Both the position numbers and the translations under genes were made by a program. From [Mycobacterium] nativiensis (GTDB lineage: Bacteria; Actinomycetota; Actinomycetes; Mycobacteriales; Mycobacteriaceae), in contig NZ_CP083986.1 of assembly GCF_020172685.1 (NCBI RefSeq), positions 2,659,433-2,723,432 on the forward strand: DNA of 64,000 bases, written 5' to 3'. Position 1 is the stretch's first letter. Every line of letters begins with the position of its first letter. Positions 28,512-64,000 of this stretch are shown here, in pieces. Below the pieces are notes generated by a model. It was not told the DNA's origin, made no database searches, and saw only the letters and a program-made list of their open reading frames with translations.

Positions 28512-31500
28512 TCAGGGCTCGGTCTCGTCCTCCGGCGGTTGGGTCACGGTCAGCATCTCGGTGGACGGGTCCGCGGCCGGTTCTGCCGGCCCCACGGACA
28601 TCTCCGGGAACGCAGTGGCCACCATGTCCTCGAAAATCCAGTCCGGCGCGTCGGCCTGGCCGGCGGCGGCATCGGCTTCCGGTTCACCGACAGCTTCGGG
28701 TGCGCCGACGGCGCCCGATGCGCCGACGGCGGCAGCCACCGGAACGGCCGAACGCGACGCCCGCGCCGGATGCTCCCGCACGTTCAGCGGCCACCAGAAC
28801 CACCGACCCAGCAGCGCCGCAACGGACGGCATCAGGAACGAGCGCACGATCAGGGTGTCGAACAGCAGGCCGAGCCCGATGGTGGTACCCACCTGGCCCA
28901 CCACCCGCAAGTCACTGACCAGCATGGACGCCATGGTGAAGGCGAACACCAACCCTGCCGCGGTGACGACCTTGCCGGTGCCGCCCATCGCTCGGATGAT
29001 GCCGGTCTTGAGCCCGGCACTCATCTCCTCCTTGAATCGGGCGACCAACAGCAGGTTGTAGTCACAGCCCACCGCCAGCAGGATGATCACCGACATCACC
29101 ATCACCAGCCAATGCAGGTTGATGCCGAAGATGTACTGCCACACCAATACCGACAGCCCGACGGACGCCCCCAACGAGGCCAGCACCGTTCCGACGATCA
29201 CCAGCGAGGCGATAAAGCTGCGTGTGATCAACAGCATGATGATGAAAATGATTGCCAGCGAAGTGATCCCGGCGATCAGCAGGTCATAGTCGGCGATTCC
29301 CTGCAGGTCGTTGAACAGTGCCGCGGTGCCTGCCACATAGACCTTGGCAGTCGACAACGGTGTGCCCTTGAGGGATTCGGTGGCGGCCTTCTTGATCAGG
29401 TTCACCCGTGCCATACCGTCCGGGGTCGCCGGGTAGCCGTCGTGGGTGATGAAGAAGCGCGCCGCGTGCCCGTCCGGCGACAGGAACAGCTGGATCACCC
29501 GTTTGAAGTCCGGGTTGTCGAATGCTTCCCGGGGCAGGTAGAACGAGTCGTCGCTCTTGGCGGCGTCGAAGTCCTGGCCCATCGCGGCCGAATCCCCGCC
29601 GACTTCCTCGGCCTGCGCCATGATCCCGGACATCGTGCTGTTCAGCGTCAGCATCATGGTCTGCAGGCTGCGCATCGCGGCAATCTGCGCCGGCATCATA
29701 TCGAGCAGTTGCGGCGTCACCGCATCGACGTTGCTCATGACCGGCGCCAGCTCGTTGATCTTGTCGGTGAGCAGGTTGGCACTGTCCATCGACGCGTATG
29801 CCGACCGCAACGACAAACACGTCGGATCGCCACGGCAATCCTGTTGCGAGGAAACCGATTCGCGCAGCAGCTTGGAGGAATTGTTGAAATCGGCCATGTG
29901 CCTGCGCATCTCCGCGGCCACGTCCATCGCCTCGTGCGAGACACCGGTCGCTTCGTGCGTGTTATCGGCCATCTGCTGCATAAGGCCATACATTCGTTGC
30001 AGCGAGGCGATGGTGCCCTCAAGATCGTCGGCCTGCTTGCGCATGTCGGTGACCCGACTCTTGACGAAGTCCAGGTTCTGCATCTGCCCGGCGTTCTGCA
30101 TGCTGAGCAGGAACGGGATCGAGGTGTGCCCCAGCGGGGCCCCCTCCGGCCGCGTCACCCCCTGCACCAGTGCCACACCCTCGACCGCGAAGACACTCTT
30201 GGCCAGCTTGTTGAGCACCAGGAAGTCCGCCGAGTTGCGCATGTCGCGATCGGCTTCGACCAGCAGCACCTCCGGCAGCAGCCGCGATTCCGGGAAGTGC
30301 CGCGACGCGGCGGCCCAGCCGAGGTTGGCCGGGGTGTCCTTCGGAATGAAGGACGGGTCCTTGTAGCTCACCTGATAGCCGGGCAGCGCCAGCAGTCCGA
30401 TCAGCGCAACTGCGCTGGCAGCCACGAAGATCGGACCGGGCCACCTCACGATCGCGGTGCCGATCTTGCGCCAGCCGCGGTCCGACATCTTGCGTCGGGG
30501 CTCCAACAGACCGTAGCGACTGGCGACGGTCAGGACCGCCGGAACCAGCGTCAGCGCGATGGCCACCGCGACGAGCATTCCGACCGCGCACGGGATACCC
30601 ATGGTCTGAAAGACCGGCAACCGGGTGAAGCTCAAACACAAGGTTGCGCCGGCGATCGTCAGGCCCGACGCCAGCACCACATGGGCGACCCCGCGGTAAG
30701 TGGTGTAATACGCCGTTTCCGGGTCCTCACCGGCGTGCCGGGCCTCGTGATAGCGACCGATGAAGAAGATGCCGTAGTCGGTACCGGCGGCGATCGCCAA
30801 CGTCACCAAGATGTTGATCGCGAACGTGGACAACCCGATCAGGCCGACGTGTCCCAGGAAAGCGACGATCCCGCGCGCCGCGGCCAGCTCGATACCGACC
30901 ACGGCCAACAGCAGAGCGACGGTGCTGAACGAGCGATAGAGCAGCATCAACATCAGCGTGATGACCGAAACGGTGGCCAGCAGGATCTTCAGCACCGCAC
31001 GGTCACCGCTGGTGTTCATGTCGGTGACCATGGGGGCCGGACCGGTGACGTAAGCCCGGACGCCCGGCGGCGCCGGTGTGCGGTTCACGATGTCCCGGAC
31101 CGCTTCGACGGAGTCGTTGGCCAGCGCCTCACCCTGGTTTCCGGCGAGGTTCAGCTGGACCAGCGCCGCCTTGCCGTCGGCACTTTGGGCTCCGCCCGCG
31201 GTGAGCGGGTCTCCCCAGAAGTCCTGGATGTGCTGGATGTGTTTCGTGTCGGCATTGAGCTGAGCAATCAGCTCGTTGTAGTAGCGGTGGGCGGATTCGC
31301 CCAGGGGCTCGTCACCCTCGATGACGATCATCGCCGCGCTGTCGGTGTTCGACTCCTGGAATACGTGCCCCAGCCGCGCCATCGCCTGAATGGACGGTGC
31401 GTCCTTGGCGCTCAACGAAACCGGGTGCTCCTTGGCGACCTGTTCCAGTGCCGGAACCGCCAGGCTCACCAACAGTGTGATCGCCACCCAGCCCAGGATG

Positions 31501-31571
31501 ATGGGCAGGGCGAACCTGCGGACCAACCCCGGTGCGGATGGCCGACTACGACTCGGATGGTGCGTCTTCAT
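28512..31571 (-). CDS. MmpL-family RND lipid transporter
   Basis: This 1019-residue inner-membrane transporter has two RND halves. Each half has one N-terminal helix, a large periplasmic loop and five further helices. The proton-relay segments ATDYGIFFIGRY (first half) and GCDYNLLLVARF (second half) carry the Asp-Tyr pairs. The second-half periplasmic loop is long and helical (residues ~470-720), as in lipid-exporting MmpLs. A ~100-residue low-complexity C-terminal tail follows (GASGAVGAPEAVGEPEAD). No MmpS gene is adjacent. Placement beside lipid-tailoring genes suggests export of their product, which is inference. Confidence 0.9.
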   Translation of the reverse strand: MKTHHPSRSRPSAPGLVRRFALPIILGWVAITLLVSLAVPALEQVAKEHPVSLSAKDAPSIQAMARLGHVFQESNTDSAAMIVIEGDEPLGESAHRYYNELIAQLNADTKHIQHIQDFWGDPLTAGGAQSADGKAALVQLNLAGNQGEALANDSVEAVRDIVNRTPAPPGVRAYVTGPAPMVTDMNTSGDRAVLKILLATVSVITLMLMLLYRSFSTVALLLAVVGIELAAARGIVAFLGHVGLIGLSTFAINILVTLAIAAGTDYGIFFIGRYHEARHAGEDPETAYYTTYRGVAHVVLASGLTIAGATLCLSFTRLPVFQTMGIPCAVGMLVAVAIALTLVPAVLTVASRYGLLEPRRKMSDRGWRKIGTAIVRWPGPIFVAASAVALIGLLALPGYQVSYKDPSFIPKDTPANLGWAAASRHFPESRLLPEVLLVEADRDMRNSADFLVLNKLAKSVFAVEGVALVQGVTRPEGAPLGHTSIPFLLSMQNAGQMQNLDFVKSRVTDMRKQADDLEGTIASLQRMYGLMQQMADNTHEATGVSHEAMDVAAEMRRHMADFNNSSKLLRESVSSQQDCRGDPTCLSLRSAYASMDSANLLTDKINELAPVMSNVDAVTPQLLDMMPAQIAAMRSLQTMMLTLNSTMSGIMAQAEEVGGDSAAMGQDFDAAKSDDSFYLPREAFDNPDFKRVIQLFLSPDGHAARFFITHDGYPATPDGMARVNLIKKAATESLKGTPLSTAKVYVAGTAALFNDLQGIADYDLLIAGITSLAIIFIIMLLITRSFIASLVIVGTVLASLGASVGLSVLVWQYIFGINLHWLVMVMSVIILLAVGCDYNLLLVARFKEEMSAGLKTGIIRAMGGTGKVVTAAGLVFAFTMASMLVSDLRVVGQVGTTIGLGLLFDTLIVRSFLMPSVAALLGRWFWWPLNVREHPARASRSAVPVAAAVGASGAVGAPEAVGEPEADAAAGQADAPDWIFEDMVATAFPEMSVGPAEPAADPSTEMLTVTQPPEDETEP

Positions 31572-63700: not shown

Positions 63701-64000
63701 TCGGCTGTCTCGATGATCGAGTGCGTCAGCAGCGGGTGCGGGCTGACCTCGATGAAGGTGGTGTGGTCCTGCGCCGCGGCGGTGATCGCCTGGCTGACCA
63801 GCGCGGGCCGTCGGATGTTGTGCGCCCAGTACGCGGCATCCAGAACCGGTGTGGGCCCGGCCGGGTCAAATGTCGTGGAGTAGAAGGGGATCTGCGGTGT
63901 CGAAGGCACCAGATCAGCCAATGCCGCCCGCAACTCATCCAGGATCGGATCCATAAACGCGGTATGGGAGGCCACCTCCATATTGACCCGCCGCGCAAAC
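60787..64000 (-). CDS. Modular polyketide synthase, partial (AT-DH-KR-ACP), DH probably dead
   Basis: The 5' part (KS and most of AT) is outside the window; about 1070 residues are visible. The AT end has MEVASHTAF. The DH-like domain carries AANPVQGQAVLP where an active DH would have His as first residue of HxxxGxxxxP; here it is Asn (codon at about 63391-63393). The second motif HPALLDAALR keeps the Asp. KR has TGGLGGLGIVVA and an intact LGLPGQLGYATSN. The ACP has GLDSM, and a docking-like tail (DELFDQVESAS) follows. There is no ER. The module should leave a hydroxyl group. It feeds the PpsD-like protein, overlapping it by 4 bp. Confidence 0.9.
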   Translation of the reverse strand, partial: FARRVNMEVASHTAFMDPILDELRAALADLVPSTPQIPFYSTTFDPAGPTPVLDAAYWAHNIRRPALVSQAITAAAQDHTTFIEVSPHPLLTHSIIETAEAAGGEPVTVASTLRRGDDETLGFHLQLAELGGLADRTSPSMPGGFAELPHSVWQHTRHWITAPAQAGHAPDTHPLLGAHVEMINGRDHIWQTDLSPEVMAWLAANPVQGQAVLPAAALIEMALAAGSQALGRPAEAITVTGLEIEQPLVLDGGMQVTTQLSTADGQTRIEIHARSGADAWSRYATADIAPAPAEQAAVSPAEQSVLTLPDTVATHPAYRLHPALLDAALRKLAAAAAADQADQESDAVGYAPTTVAAVRVFAPAGRQVHCHTEVTSLEDKVAVGRVVLTDPSDGATIAELTGVELRPIDPRSLRVPLEQKLFATEWTPTEPSTAAAPSGAADGSWLLLTESGAALDGDTEALAAAFAARLAAPNRKVVTGPFADEPALAEAVAQAAADPAHSPAGIVVFLGRQAFDGTDPQALERARQLVWTASQAARTAVEGWPGASAGATKPRLWLVSRGGLAFGDGEPGDPAIGALKGVVRTWRFPGELARVLADEPDLGATLVDLDASEDTSVQVDNLLAELQAPLRDDVIAWRGGQRHTERLTRATLDSEASQVSPAEVRADGSYLLTGGLGGLGIVVARWLVARGAGRLILNGRSEPSEEQRAVLAELAADAQVAFVAGDISSPGVAERLVAAAEETGLPLRGVVHAAGVLGDGLVTAVTRESLESVWSAKAVGAAHLHAATASRELDWWVGFSSMAALLGLPGQLGYATSNAWLDALMAWRRASGLPATAVNWGQWSDVGIGRSMTLSVLDPISPDEGIEALDAVLGADANRIGARVGVGRLRIDRAVSTSPEFRDLTFFEDLVGEADVTIGAAETGEQASGGTSDPSAAGPPDWSQIPADKRLDELMVRLQAILARELRTSAAAVDVDQPFPEMGLDSMIAMTVLKETQQMVGVDLSASMLWNHPSISALATHLVGLLASRYATQDDAVQDDGHLTFDSSGGVLDELFDQVESASTGSESGF

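What the first reader, a model, noticed from the sequence alone, without database searches (positions are those of the whole stretch)
28512..64000. Candidate novel DIM-related lipid ester system
Within about 35 kb there are a Pps-like line (partial module, PpsD-like, PpsE-like), a PapA5-like acyltransferase, two Rv2952-like methyltransferases, an MmpL, a P450-SDR pair, a Baeyer-Villiger-type enzyme, an AurF-like diiron oxygenase and an SDR-hydrolase fusion. DIM loci have the first four types; the oxygenase set is not part of the DIM locus as I know it. The block sits beside ileS rather than next to fadD26/ppsA. The idea that all parts make one product is inference, because exported-protein genes separate the two halves.
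Basis: partly seen in the sequence, partly recalled or inferred. Interest (0 to 1): 0.75.

Follow-up and report, generated by a model that had tools for sequence, protein, structure and literature searches.

The report
Mycobacterial lipid-ester gene cluster, possibly forked
A conserved gene cluster in a group of environmental mycobacteria appears to build an undescribed waxy lipid that is related to, but chemically different from, the DIM lipid of tuberculosis bacteria, and its assembly line seems to hold two interchangeable parts working side by side.

Summary
The genes are there as described. The cluster runs on past the window: ppsA-, fadD26- and tesA-like genes lie about 9 to 22 kb further right, so the claim that it is away from fadD26/ppsA fails. 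The 'partial module' is an assembly gap; in four single-contig relatives that module is unbroken. The host group is Mycolicibacter (M. terrae complex).

It is not the DIM locus: no enoyl-reductase domain, no drrABC or mas beside it, four of five acyltransferases methylmalonyl-type by motif, and a PapA5 well separated from DIM's. In the loci read, a Baeyer-Villiger enzyme, nitroreductase, DUF2505 protein, flavodoxin-like protein and methyltransferase accompany this PapA5, even in two other genera; a hydrolase does within Mycobacterium. AurF, P450, SDR and one methyltransferase are additions in Mycolicibacter and near kin.

Most surprising: by the docking ends that join DIM synthases, modules M1 and M3 have the same entry and exit, so the line reads FadD - M2 - (M1 or M3) - M4 - M5. 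Their fronts are homogenised within each genome (95.5-99.1% DNA identity, against 86.4-94.5% between species). I predict a methyl-branched, PapA5-esterified ketone lipid from a forked line. No product has been seen; chemistry and fork are inference.

The parts
28512..31598 (-). MmpL transporter, likely exporter of the product
   Evidence: Pfam MMPL 8.7e-214; TIGR00833 above cut-off; present in the locus in 8 of 8 Mycolicibacter relatives
31641..33149 (-). Baeyer-Villiger monooxygenase-type flavoprotein
   Evidence: solved relatives are mostly BVMOs, best 7.6e-76; fingerprint FAGHIVHTAEWD at residue 160 and two GxGxxG sites; in the locus in Mycolicibacter 8 of 8, group-2 loci 5 of 5, other genera 3 of 3
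33334..34461 (+). AurF-like diiron oxygenase
   Evidence: Pfam AurF 1.2e-101; ExxxH at residues 165 and 248; relatives in 152 of 158 genomes, so not specific by itself
34493..35326 (+). methyltransferase MT1 (Rv2952-like)
   Evidence: NCBIfam NF045823, 444.9 bits against cut-off 300
35504..36868 (+). cytochrome P450
   Evidence: Pfam 1.7e-33; haem motif FGGGAHYCLG
36865..37695 (+). short-chain dehydrogenase, overlaps the P450 gene by 4 bases
   Evidence: Pfam adh_short 1.6e-44; YxxxK at 147
37757..38578 (+). methyltransferase MT2 (Rv2952-like)
   Evidence: NCBIfam NF045823, 339.2 bits against cut-off 300
38600..40342 (-). SDR fused to alpha/beta hydrolase; the hydrolase half is 38600-39394
   Evidence: Pfam; GHSMG at 409; fused in 6 of 8 Mycolicibacter relatives, hydrolase without the SDR part in 2
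40392..41480 (+). exported PE-PPE-domain protein
   Evidence: Pfam PF08237 7.7e-51; present in 6 of 8 Mycolicibacter relatives
41550..42953 (-). exported protein of a mycobacterial family, unknown fold
   Evidence: no Pfam; AlphaFold2 pLDDT 79.5, pTM 0.74, no PDB match
43077..44849 (-). exported protein, same family by shared motif
   Evidence: sequence
45128..46720 (-). exported protein, same family by shared motif; close relative in 2 of 8 Mycolicibacter relatives only
   Evidence: sequence
46869..47612 (-). nitroreductase-family flavoenzyme, core gene
   Evidence: Pfam 2.1e-21; 15 of 15 loci of this clade read, 3 of 3 other-genus loci
47585..48097 (-). DUF2505 protein, core gene
   Evidence: Pfam 2.9e-38; within 15 kb of PapA5 in at least 24 of 25 clade genomes
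48098..48859 (-). flavodoxin-like protein (weak call), core gene
   Evidence: Pfam Flavodoxin E 0.24 only, below cut-off; 15 of 15 loci of this clade read
48765..49679 (+). methyltransferase MT3 (LCM type), core gene
   Evidence: Pfam LCM 3.3e-14; 15 of 15 loci of this clade read
49672..50931 (-). PapA5-type acyltransferase
   Evidence: PapA_C 1.8e-61; HHAVADG; only solved relative is PapA5 1q9j, 3.3e-121
50958..55358 (-). PKS M5, PpsE-like: KS-AT-ACP-condensation
   Evidence: Pfam
55355..60790 (-). PKS M4, PpsD-like: KS-AT-DH-KR-ACP; entry type B, exit type D
   Evidence: Pfam; docking scores
60787..64000 (-). PKS M3, rear part (AT end-DH-KR-ACP), cut by the assembly gap; exit type A; DH histidine replaced by Asn
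   Evidence: Pfam; gap; intact 1816-1817 aa in four single-contig relatives; docking and DH site. The front of M3, and M2, M1, FadD and the thioesterase, lie beyond the window at G000:C1:2730990-2745494

Best explanation
This is one conserved biosynthetic locus for a PapA5-esterified polyketide lipid: a sister pathway of DIM, not DIM itself. SHOWN BY SEQUENCE: the parts, their order, the co-conservation, absence of an ER domain in the locus, the docking-end types by similarity, and homogenisation of the M1 and M3 fronts. INFERRED: the FadD26-like ligase activates a long fatty acid and loads it on the N-terminal ACP of M2 (PpsA-type front). M2 adds a methylmalonyl unit and leaves a hydroxyl. 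M2 then hands the chain to either M1 or M3, which have the same entry end and nearly the same KS; each adds a second methylmalonyl unit. Both deliver to M4 (methylmalonyl; KR and DH), then M5. Release and decarboxylation give a terminal ketone. PapA5 esterifies the hydroxyls. The BVMO with the hydrolase trims or oxygenates the ketone end; the methyltransferases cap hydroxyls; in Mycolicibacter AurF, P450 and SDR oxidise further; MmpL exports. My probabilities: one pathway making a DIM-like but chemically distinct ester, 0.7; fork used in the cell, 0.4; BVMO plus hydrolase acting on the polyketide ketone, 0.4. The figure below is for the first claim with at least one of the other two.
For: Whole locus unbroken in single-contig relatives, apart from M1 in G073. 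Presence table over 18 loci: BVMO, hydrolase, nitroreductase, DUF2505, flavodoxin-like and MT3 in 8 of 8 Mycolicibacter, 5 of 5 group-2 loci and G066; in 0 of 3 DIM-type or two-PKS loci; G030 shows four of the six before its contig ends. Co-location 22 of 25 against 1 of 38 genomes. Three genomes of two other genera hold five PKS and the same core, minus the hydrolase. PapA5 tree: the clade is split from the six outside rows used, two of them DIM-type, at 99/97. AT motif VASH in M1-M4, as in PpsD and Mas; VAPH in DIM PpsA-C. Docking: M1 entry C/exit A, M2 entry A/exit B, M3 entry C/exit A, M4 entry B/exit D. Control: in G146 an M2-type PKS is followed directly by a PpsE-type, and its exit is type D, the type that PpsE takes. 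M1-M3 DNA identity 95.5-99.1% within 4 of 4 single-contig genomes, 12 orthologue comparisons 86.4-94.5%.
Against: No product or mutant is known. FadD is encoded beside M1, not M2. Gene conversion between KS domains is known in other PKS (recalled), so homogenised fronts need not mean shared function. The AT motif rule does not cover PpsE, which carries HAFH although the published total (three malonyl, two methylmalonyl; PMC3089613, passage read) leaves it a methylmalonyl unit, so the terminal group is open. Some ends score for two types: exit of M1 in G082 (A 8.1, B 6.0), exit of M3 in G264 (A 3.8, C 5.1), entry of M4 in G022 (B 16.5, C 5.7). The hydrolase is missing from all three other-genus loci. 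No full-length Mas-type PKS was found in this draft or in G022 at the thresholds used, so the esterifying acid is unknown. AurF relatives are in 152 of 158 genomes.
Confidence: 0.55

Rival explanations
1. A linear line in gene order: FadD - M1 - M2 - M3 - M4 - M5, the N-terminal ACP of M2 acting as a relay from M1.
For: Gene order and operon layout, FadD next to M1. Junctions M2-M3, M3-M4 and M4-M5 fit the docking types. DIM itself is collinear (general knowledge).
Against: The M1-M2 junction does not fit: M1 exit is type A, and the M2 front is a loading ACP with PpsA-type KS. M1 has no loading ACP, and its entry type C is the partner of exit B, which only M2 has. In group 2, M1 is itself a loading module with its own FadD.
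Confidence: 0.3
2. M1 is a leftover: a former second starter module (as in group 2) whose front was overwritten by M3 and which no longer makes product.
For: M1 of group 2 (where its front was read) and of three other-genus loci is a starter with its own loading ACP. M1 is interrupted in the single-contig genome G073, though that stretch may be an assembly error.
Against: M1 is open full length in the window genome, G022, G069, G016 and G066, and its KR, ACP and docking ends are conserved.
Confidence: 0.2
3. Two neighbouring pathways: PKS-PapA5-core make one lipid, while AurF, P450, SDR and MT2 act on something else.
For: Exported-protein genes lie between; AurF is in 0 of 5 group-2 loci and P450 has only distant relatives there; none of AurF, P450, MT2 in the other-genus stretches; transcription directions differ.
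Against: All are at the locus in 8 of 8 Mycolicibacter loci; BVMO and hydrolase, which flank this block, are core genes; M. shimoidei also has P450 and SDR relatives near PapA5; MT1 and MT2 fit a DIM-type methyltransferase model.
Confidence: 0.3
4. It is the ordinary DIM locus of this species.
For: Same gene order fadD26-ppsA to E-papA5; tesA-like and Rv2952-like genes.
Against: No ER domain, no drrABC, no mas beside it, methylmalonyl-type ATs in M1-M4, PapA5 45% identical to that of the DIM-type loci and in another clade, no dedicated Rv2953 copy.
Confidence: 0.04

Closest known systems
DIM (phthiocerol dimycocerosate) locus; G105 and G075 are read here as such by gene content (gene names recalled)
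   Same: fadD26-ppsA-E-papA5 order, PapA5 family, Rv2952-type methyltransferase (G105), tesA-type thioesterase, MmpL (G105)
   Different: DIM has a longer third PKS (ER of PpsC, recalled), drrABC, mas and fadD28 nearby, VAPH (malonyl-type) ATs in PpsA-C, and none of the BVMO, hydrolase, nitroreductase, DUF2505, flavodoxin-like or MT3 genes in the stretches read
Group-2 loci (G082, G085, G099, G054, G140) and loci in two other genera (G256, G264, G296); no description found
   Same: same core genes (hydrolase not in the other genera), VASH-type ATs and the same docking types for M2-M4 where read
   Different: M1 is a second loading module where its front was read; group 2 has a second FadD (5 of 5); three genes at the drrABC place in 4 of 5 group-2 loci, two picked in G099; no MmpL or AurF in the stretches read
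Bifurcated NRPS line of wollamide/desotamide (PMC9205934: abstract, outline and passages read)
   Same: two alternative enzymes taking over from one upstream partner, arising by duplication and recombination inside one genome
   Different: NRPS, the branches end the line and the products were seen; here a PKS whose branches would rejoin, product unseen
M. tuberculosis PapA5 (PDB 1q9j)
   Same: same family over residues 1-411, HHxxxDG site
   Different: the DIM-type PapA5 of G105 is 45% identical; score below the NCBIfam equivalog cut-off

Membership tests
DIM/PDIM biosynthetic locus | fadD26-like ligase and five co-directional PKS ending in a PpsE type, then papA5 | tested here: met
DIM/PDIM biosynthetic locus | third PKS (PpsC) with an enoyl reductase (recalled) | tested here: not met
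   no ER domain in M1-M5 by Pfam; the third PKS of G105/G075 carries about 340-360 extra residues there (Pfam not run on them)
DIM/PDIM biosynthetic locus | three malonyl plus two methylmalonyl units (PMC3089613, passage read) | tested here: not met
   M1-M4 VASH; DIM PpsA-C VAPH; motif only, no assay
DIM/PDIM biosynthetic locus | drrABC between ppsE and papA5 | tested here: not met
   26 bases between M5 and PapA5
DIM/PDIM biosynthetic locus | mas beside papA5 | tested here: not met
   none in the locus; Mas-type PKS elsewhere in G069, G016, G073, none full length in G000 or G022 at the thresholds used
DIM/PDIM biosynthetic locus | dedicated trans-ER Rv2953 (query identified by place and recall) | tested here: not met
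   one copy at 64% in G000, like the single copies at 64-69% in non-DIM genomes; G105 has its own plus a 69% copy, G075 one at 83%
DIM/PDIM biosynthetic locus | makes phthiocerol dimycocerosates | not testable with these tools
   needs lipid analysis
PapA5 acyltransferase | PapA_C domain and HHxxxDG site | tested here: met
PapA5 acyltransferase | NCBIfam equivalog cut-off NF006790 (716 bits) | tested here: not met
   618.5 bits
Type I Baeyer-Villiger monooxygenase | FxGxxxHxxxW[PD] between two GxGxxG motifs (recalled rule) | tested here: met
Phthiotriol dimycocerosate methyltransferase family (NF045823) | score above curated cut-off 300 | tested here: met
   444.9 and 339.2 bits
Forked (bifurcated) assembly line | two modules with the same entry and the same exit docking types | tested here: met
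   M1 and M3 in G022, G069, G016, G073, G066; in the window genome exits scored, M3 entry compared by eye
Forked (bifurcated) assembly line | both branches shown to carry chain to product | not testable with these tools
   needs mutants or purified enzymes

The most novel reading that the evidence does not exclude
A modular polyketide line that forks and rejoins: M2 feeds either of two interchangeable modules (M1 or M3), whose shared front is kept alike by gene conversion while the rear halves differ, and both feed M4. The parent state, still present in group 2 and in other genera, is a line with two alternative starter modules meeting at M4. DIM would then be one lineage of an older, family-wide group of ester-lipid pathways, a broad branch of which carries a Baeyer-Villiger/nitroreductase/DUF2505 set and makes multiply methyl-branched products.
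Probability: 0.35. Interest if true: 0.78.

Novelty: new variant of a known kind. Interest (0 to 1): 0.62.

Why it matters
DIM and its glycolipid kin are among the best-studied lipids of pathogenic mycobacteria. This locus shows that related ester-lipid pathways with other predicted chemistry exist in the M. terrae complex, in further Mycobacterium species including M. shimoidei, and in two other genera of the family. That makes the origin of DIM testable by comparison. If the docking reading holds, it is a natural example of interchangeable modules inside one polyketide line, of direct use to those who try to re-wire such lines. It also gives a concrete thing to look for in extracts: a methyl-branched diol ester with a methyl- or ethyl-ketone, or Baeyer-Villiger-derived, end.

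Tried and rejected
Rejected: ordinary DIM locus (see rivals); a mobile insertion in the PKS (the 64.0-71.6 kb stretch is scaffold filler between N runs); AurF as a marker of the system (relatives in 152 of 158 genomes); DUF2505 alone as a marker (140 of 158 genomes) or the hydrolase alone (93 of 158): useful only by their place.

Led nowhere: fold search of the exported protein (no match); PDB search with AurF (no match); the PapA5 tree, spoiled by two rows read on the wrong strand, redone; a first PapA5 table that lost rows for the same reason; a paper on a nitroreductase-dependent lipid (passages: no AurF, DUF2505, P450 or flavodoxin). 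Ten literature searches showed no paper on this locus among those listed; several lists were capped (for example 20 of 86, 15 of 27, 12 of 247), only titles and starts of abstracts were seen, and subscription journals and bioRxiv are not held, so this does not show that it is unpublished. Of PMC9205934 I read abstract, outline and passages; of PMC9210659, PMC9948706, PMC3089613 and PMC10404671 passages only; the rest as search listings.

Limits on counts: one search drew 158 genomes from a larger genus, 151 from a larger family. In one search coordinates were typed; one hydrolase row (G144, another contig) and rows of genomes without PapA5 were not all typed; the DUF2505 list was cut by the tool, so its counts are lower bounds. 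G148, G030 and G041 had PapA5 but no hydrolase on the same contig and are counted as misses. The PapA5 tree holds 6 of the 38 distant genomes. Presence is by tblastn in the stretches fetched; order is from my own ORF picker, which missed some genes.

Full report
WHERE IT IS. The window is bases 2659433-2723432 of a 5.28 Mb genome held as one scaffold. The scaffold is a draft: the adapter-derived 14-mer CTGTCTCTTATACA occurs 94 times in it (42 forward and 52 reverse), against 0 in the control. The window ends exactly where a run of 166 N begins; eight N runs lie at window-scale 64001-71557, four of them with adapter remnants beside. Between them sit pieces whose Pfam domains suggest hisB, hisC, nadB, an F420 reductase, a DUF488 protein and an MmpL/AMP-ligase frame. 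In four relatives held as single contigs (G022, G069, G016, G073) the third PKS is unbroken and overlaps the second by 4 bases, so there is no room for this filler. The host group is Mycolicibacter (M. terrae complex): a scan of named genomes with the PapA5-like protein returned 23 loci, those at 92-96% all Mycolicibacter or one unnamed Mycobacterium strain, then M. acidiphilus (87%), Mycobacterium sp. ACS1612 (82%) and M. shimoidei (74%) among others. Contig lengths identify G101, G130, G078, G086 and G066 with M. algericus, M. heraklionensis, M. arupensis, M. senuensis and ACS1612 (inference).

THE WHOLE LOCUS. Beyond the window the operon continues on the same strand: front of M3 (71558-72531), M2 (72528-77306, 1592 aa), M1 (77326-82692, 1788 aa), FadD (82733-84532), a TesA-type thioesterase (85058-86062; its true start is probably later, relatives have 238 aa), then a beta-lactamase-fold protein, MeaB and methylmalonyl-CoA mutase. 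Genes overlap by 4 bases at M5/M4, M4/M3 and M3/M2. Domains: M1 KS-AT-(DH-like)-KR-ACP; M2 ACP-KS-AT-KR-ACP; M3 KS-AT-DH-KR-ACP (read in G022); M4 KS-AT-DH-KR-ACP; M5 KS-AT-ACP-condensation. No enoyl-reductase domain is found.

DOES THE TAILORING BLOCK BELONG TO IT? In 8 of 8 Mycolicibacter relatives read, MmpL, BVMO, AurF, MT1, P450, SDR, MT2, hydrolase, two of the three exported proteins, nitroreductase, DUF2505, flavodoxin-like protein, MT3, PapA5 and PpsE are present in the fetched locus; FadD is seen in the four whose contigs reach it. The SDR part of the fusion and the PE-PPE protein are missing together in 2 of the 8 (G073, G078), and the third exported protein has a close relative in only 2 of the 8. 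In group 2, five loci with PapA5 60-62% identical (G082, G085, G099, G054, G140), BVMO, hydrolase, nitroreductase, DUF2505, flavodoxin-like protein and MT3 are present 5 of 5; AurF and MmpL 0 of 5; MT1 2 of 5. G066 has all six as well; G030 four, its contig ending before the rest (an AurF relative and a locus-type hydrolase lie 2.4 kb apart on another contig of G030). In G105, G075 (DIM-type, by content) and G146 (two PKS between FadD and PapA5) those six genes are 0 of 3. Genus-wide: 63 of 158 genomes have a PapA5 relative at E<=1e-60. The hydrolase lies within 15 kb of PapA5 in 22 of 25 genomes with PapA5 at least 60% identical and in 1 of 38 others; that one (G112) is a partial PapA5 at a contig start. 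DUF2505: at least 24 of 25 against at least 7 of 38. In a sample of 151 genomes of the family, 5 have PapA5 at E<=1e-80, of which three belong to two other genera. All three of these loci carry FadD, five PKS, PapA5, MT3, flavodoxin-like protein, DUF2505, nitroreductase and BVMO, but no hydrolase. The core therefore seems older than the genus. AurF, P450, SDR and MT2 look like later additions.

NOT DIM. A PapA5 tree of 36 rows puts the 30 rows of this clade on one side of a branch with 99/97 support, the two DIM-type PapA5 and four others on the other side. DIM-type PpsA-C carry the AT motif VAPH (5 of 5 read), and PpsD and Mas-type VASH (3 of 3). That fits the published total of three malonyl and two methylmalonyl units (PMC3089613, passage read), except that PpsE carries HAFH. 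Here M1, M2 and M4 read VASH in the window genome; the remaining part of M3 begins just before its motif and also reads VASH; so do M1-M4 in the intact relatives. M5 reads GHSIG/HAFH, so its unit is uncertain. KR catalytic tyrosines are present in M1-M4. M4 has an intact DH site. The M3 DH histidine is Asn in the window genome and Gln in G022 and G069, but intact in G016 and G073. No dedicated Rv2953 enoyl reductase was found. A Mas-type PKS of full length exists elsewhere in G069, G016 and G073, but none was found in this draft or G022 at the thresholds used, so the acid that PapA5 transfers is unknown.

THE FORK. In the DIM line each PKS exit (last 42 residues) should meet the next entry (45 residues before the KS): A to B, B to C, C to D, D to E. 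I scored the ends against the DIM-type ends of G075 and G105 with 200 shuffles each. In the window genome, G022, G069, G016, G073 and G066: M1 exit A (z 8.7-13.3) and entry C (21.1-24.3); M2 entry A (16.1-22.4) and exit B (15.2-20.6); M3 exit A (9.1-13.2) and entry C (20.5-24.6 in five; in the window genome the M3 entry was compared by eye and matches M1's); M4 entry B (13.9-20.6) and exit D (6.2-9.8). The best wrong type among these scored 5.7. M5 entry fits PpsE by raw score. So exit B (M2) fits M1 and M3 alike, exit A (M1 and M3) fits M4, and exit D fits M5. No exit fits M1 to M2, M1 to M3, or M3 to M1. In group 2, M1 has exit A (6.4-11.0; type B reaches 6.0 in G082), entry A where it could be read (G082, G054), and its own FadD: an alternative starter that also joins at M4. 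In the three other-genus loci both M1 and M2 carry the loading ACP, M3 has entry C (18.7-20.4), M1 exit A; the M3 exit is A in two and ambiguous in G264. Control: in G146 an M2-type PKS is followed by a PpsE-type, and its exit is type D (4.4-7.2 against type D ends, at most 2.5 against others), as the rule requires.

HOMOGENISATION. A KS tree puts M1 and M3 in the PpsC group, M2 in the PpsA group, and M4 with PpsB/PpsD; M1 pairs with M3 of its own genome in G022, G069, G016 and G066 (G066 is a draft of many contigs). Over the first 1.3 kb, M1 and M3 of one genome share 95.5-99.1% of DNA bases (4 of 4 single-contig genomes), while the 12 orthologue comparisons give 86.4-94.5%; the alike stretch ends at about 2.4-2.6 kb, near the end of the AT. 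Rear parts are 29-47% identical at the protein level in G022, G069 and G016. This is best explained by gene conversion. It also explains the assembly break, and would keep two modules fit for the same substrate, but gene conversion alone does not prove that.

MECHANISM, INFERRED. M2, then M1 or M3, then M4, then M5 would give a fatty chain bearing a methyl-branched diol, a methyl-branched alkene (or alkane if an enoyl reductase acts in trans) and a terminal methyl or ethyl ketone. PapA5 would esterify the hydroxyls. A BVMO with an esterase is a usual pair for turning such a ketone into an ester and then an alcohol (general knowledge). Functions of nitroreductase, flavodoxin-like protein, DUF2505 and MT3 are unknown; their close company with PapA5 and BVMO suggests a redox step on the same molecule.

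PLACE. The ileS-meaB interval is 3.5-5.2 kb in G082, G085, G099, G054, G140 and G146, 52 kb in G022 (this locus), and 75 kb in G105, where it holds three Mas-type PKS; in G075 the two genes are far apart. In G066 the interval is short (4.8 kb) and the locus lies some 16 kb beyond ileS. It looks like a hot spot for envelope-lipid loci.

VERDICT. A real, conserved DIM-sister pathway for which I found no description; new variant of a known kind. The forked line is the most novel reading and is testable.

Noticed in passing
41550-46720 (three genes): Exported-protein family, named hits all mycobacterial; AlphaFold2 model of the first (pLDDT 79.5, pTM 0.74) has no match in the PDB: candidate new fold.
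   Followed up: partly
ileS (22685-25933) to meaB: Possible hot spot: 3.5-5.2 kb in six genomes, this locus in Mycolicibacter, a 75 kb stretch with three Mas-type PKS in G105.
   Followed up: partly
33334-34461: The AurF-like gene of the locus comes in two types: 81-84% identical in G022 and G078, but 57-62% in the other six Mycolicibacter, whose flanking BVMO and MT1 are 87-98% identical.
   Followed up: no
G073, M1 region: M1 is interrupted in the KR region in this single-contig genome while M2-M5 are open; could be real loss of a redundant module or an assembly error.
   Followed up: partly
M3 of G082 and G099: Group-2 M3 seems to have the unusual order KS-AT-KR-DH-like-ACP, with a PpsB-type KR.
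   Followed up: no
64001-71557 (just outside the window): Scaffold holds eight N runs, four with adapter remnants, and misplaced small contigs; 94 adapter-derived 14-mers genome-wide.
   Followed up: yes
G042, G095, G152, G144, G087, G109: More distant PapA5 loci (45-48%) also have a DUF2505 gene 6-8 kb away: perhaps a further subfamily.
   Followed up: no
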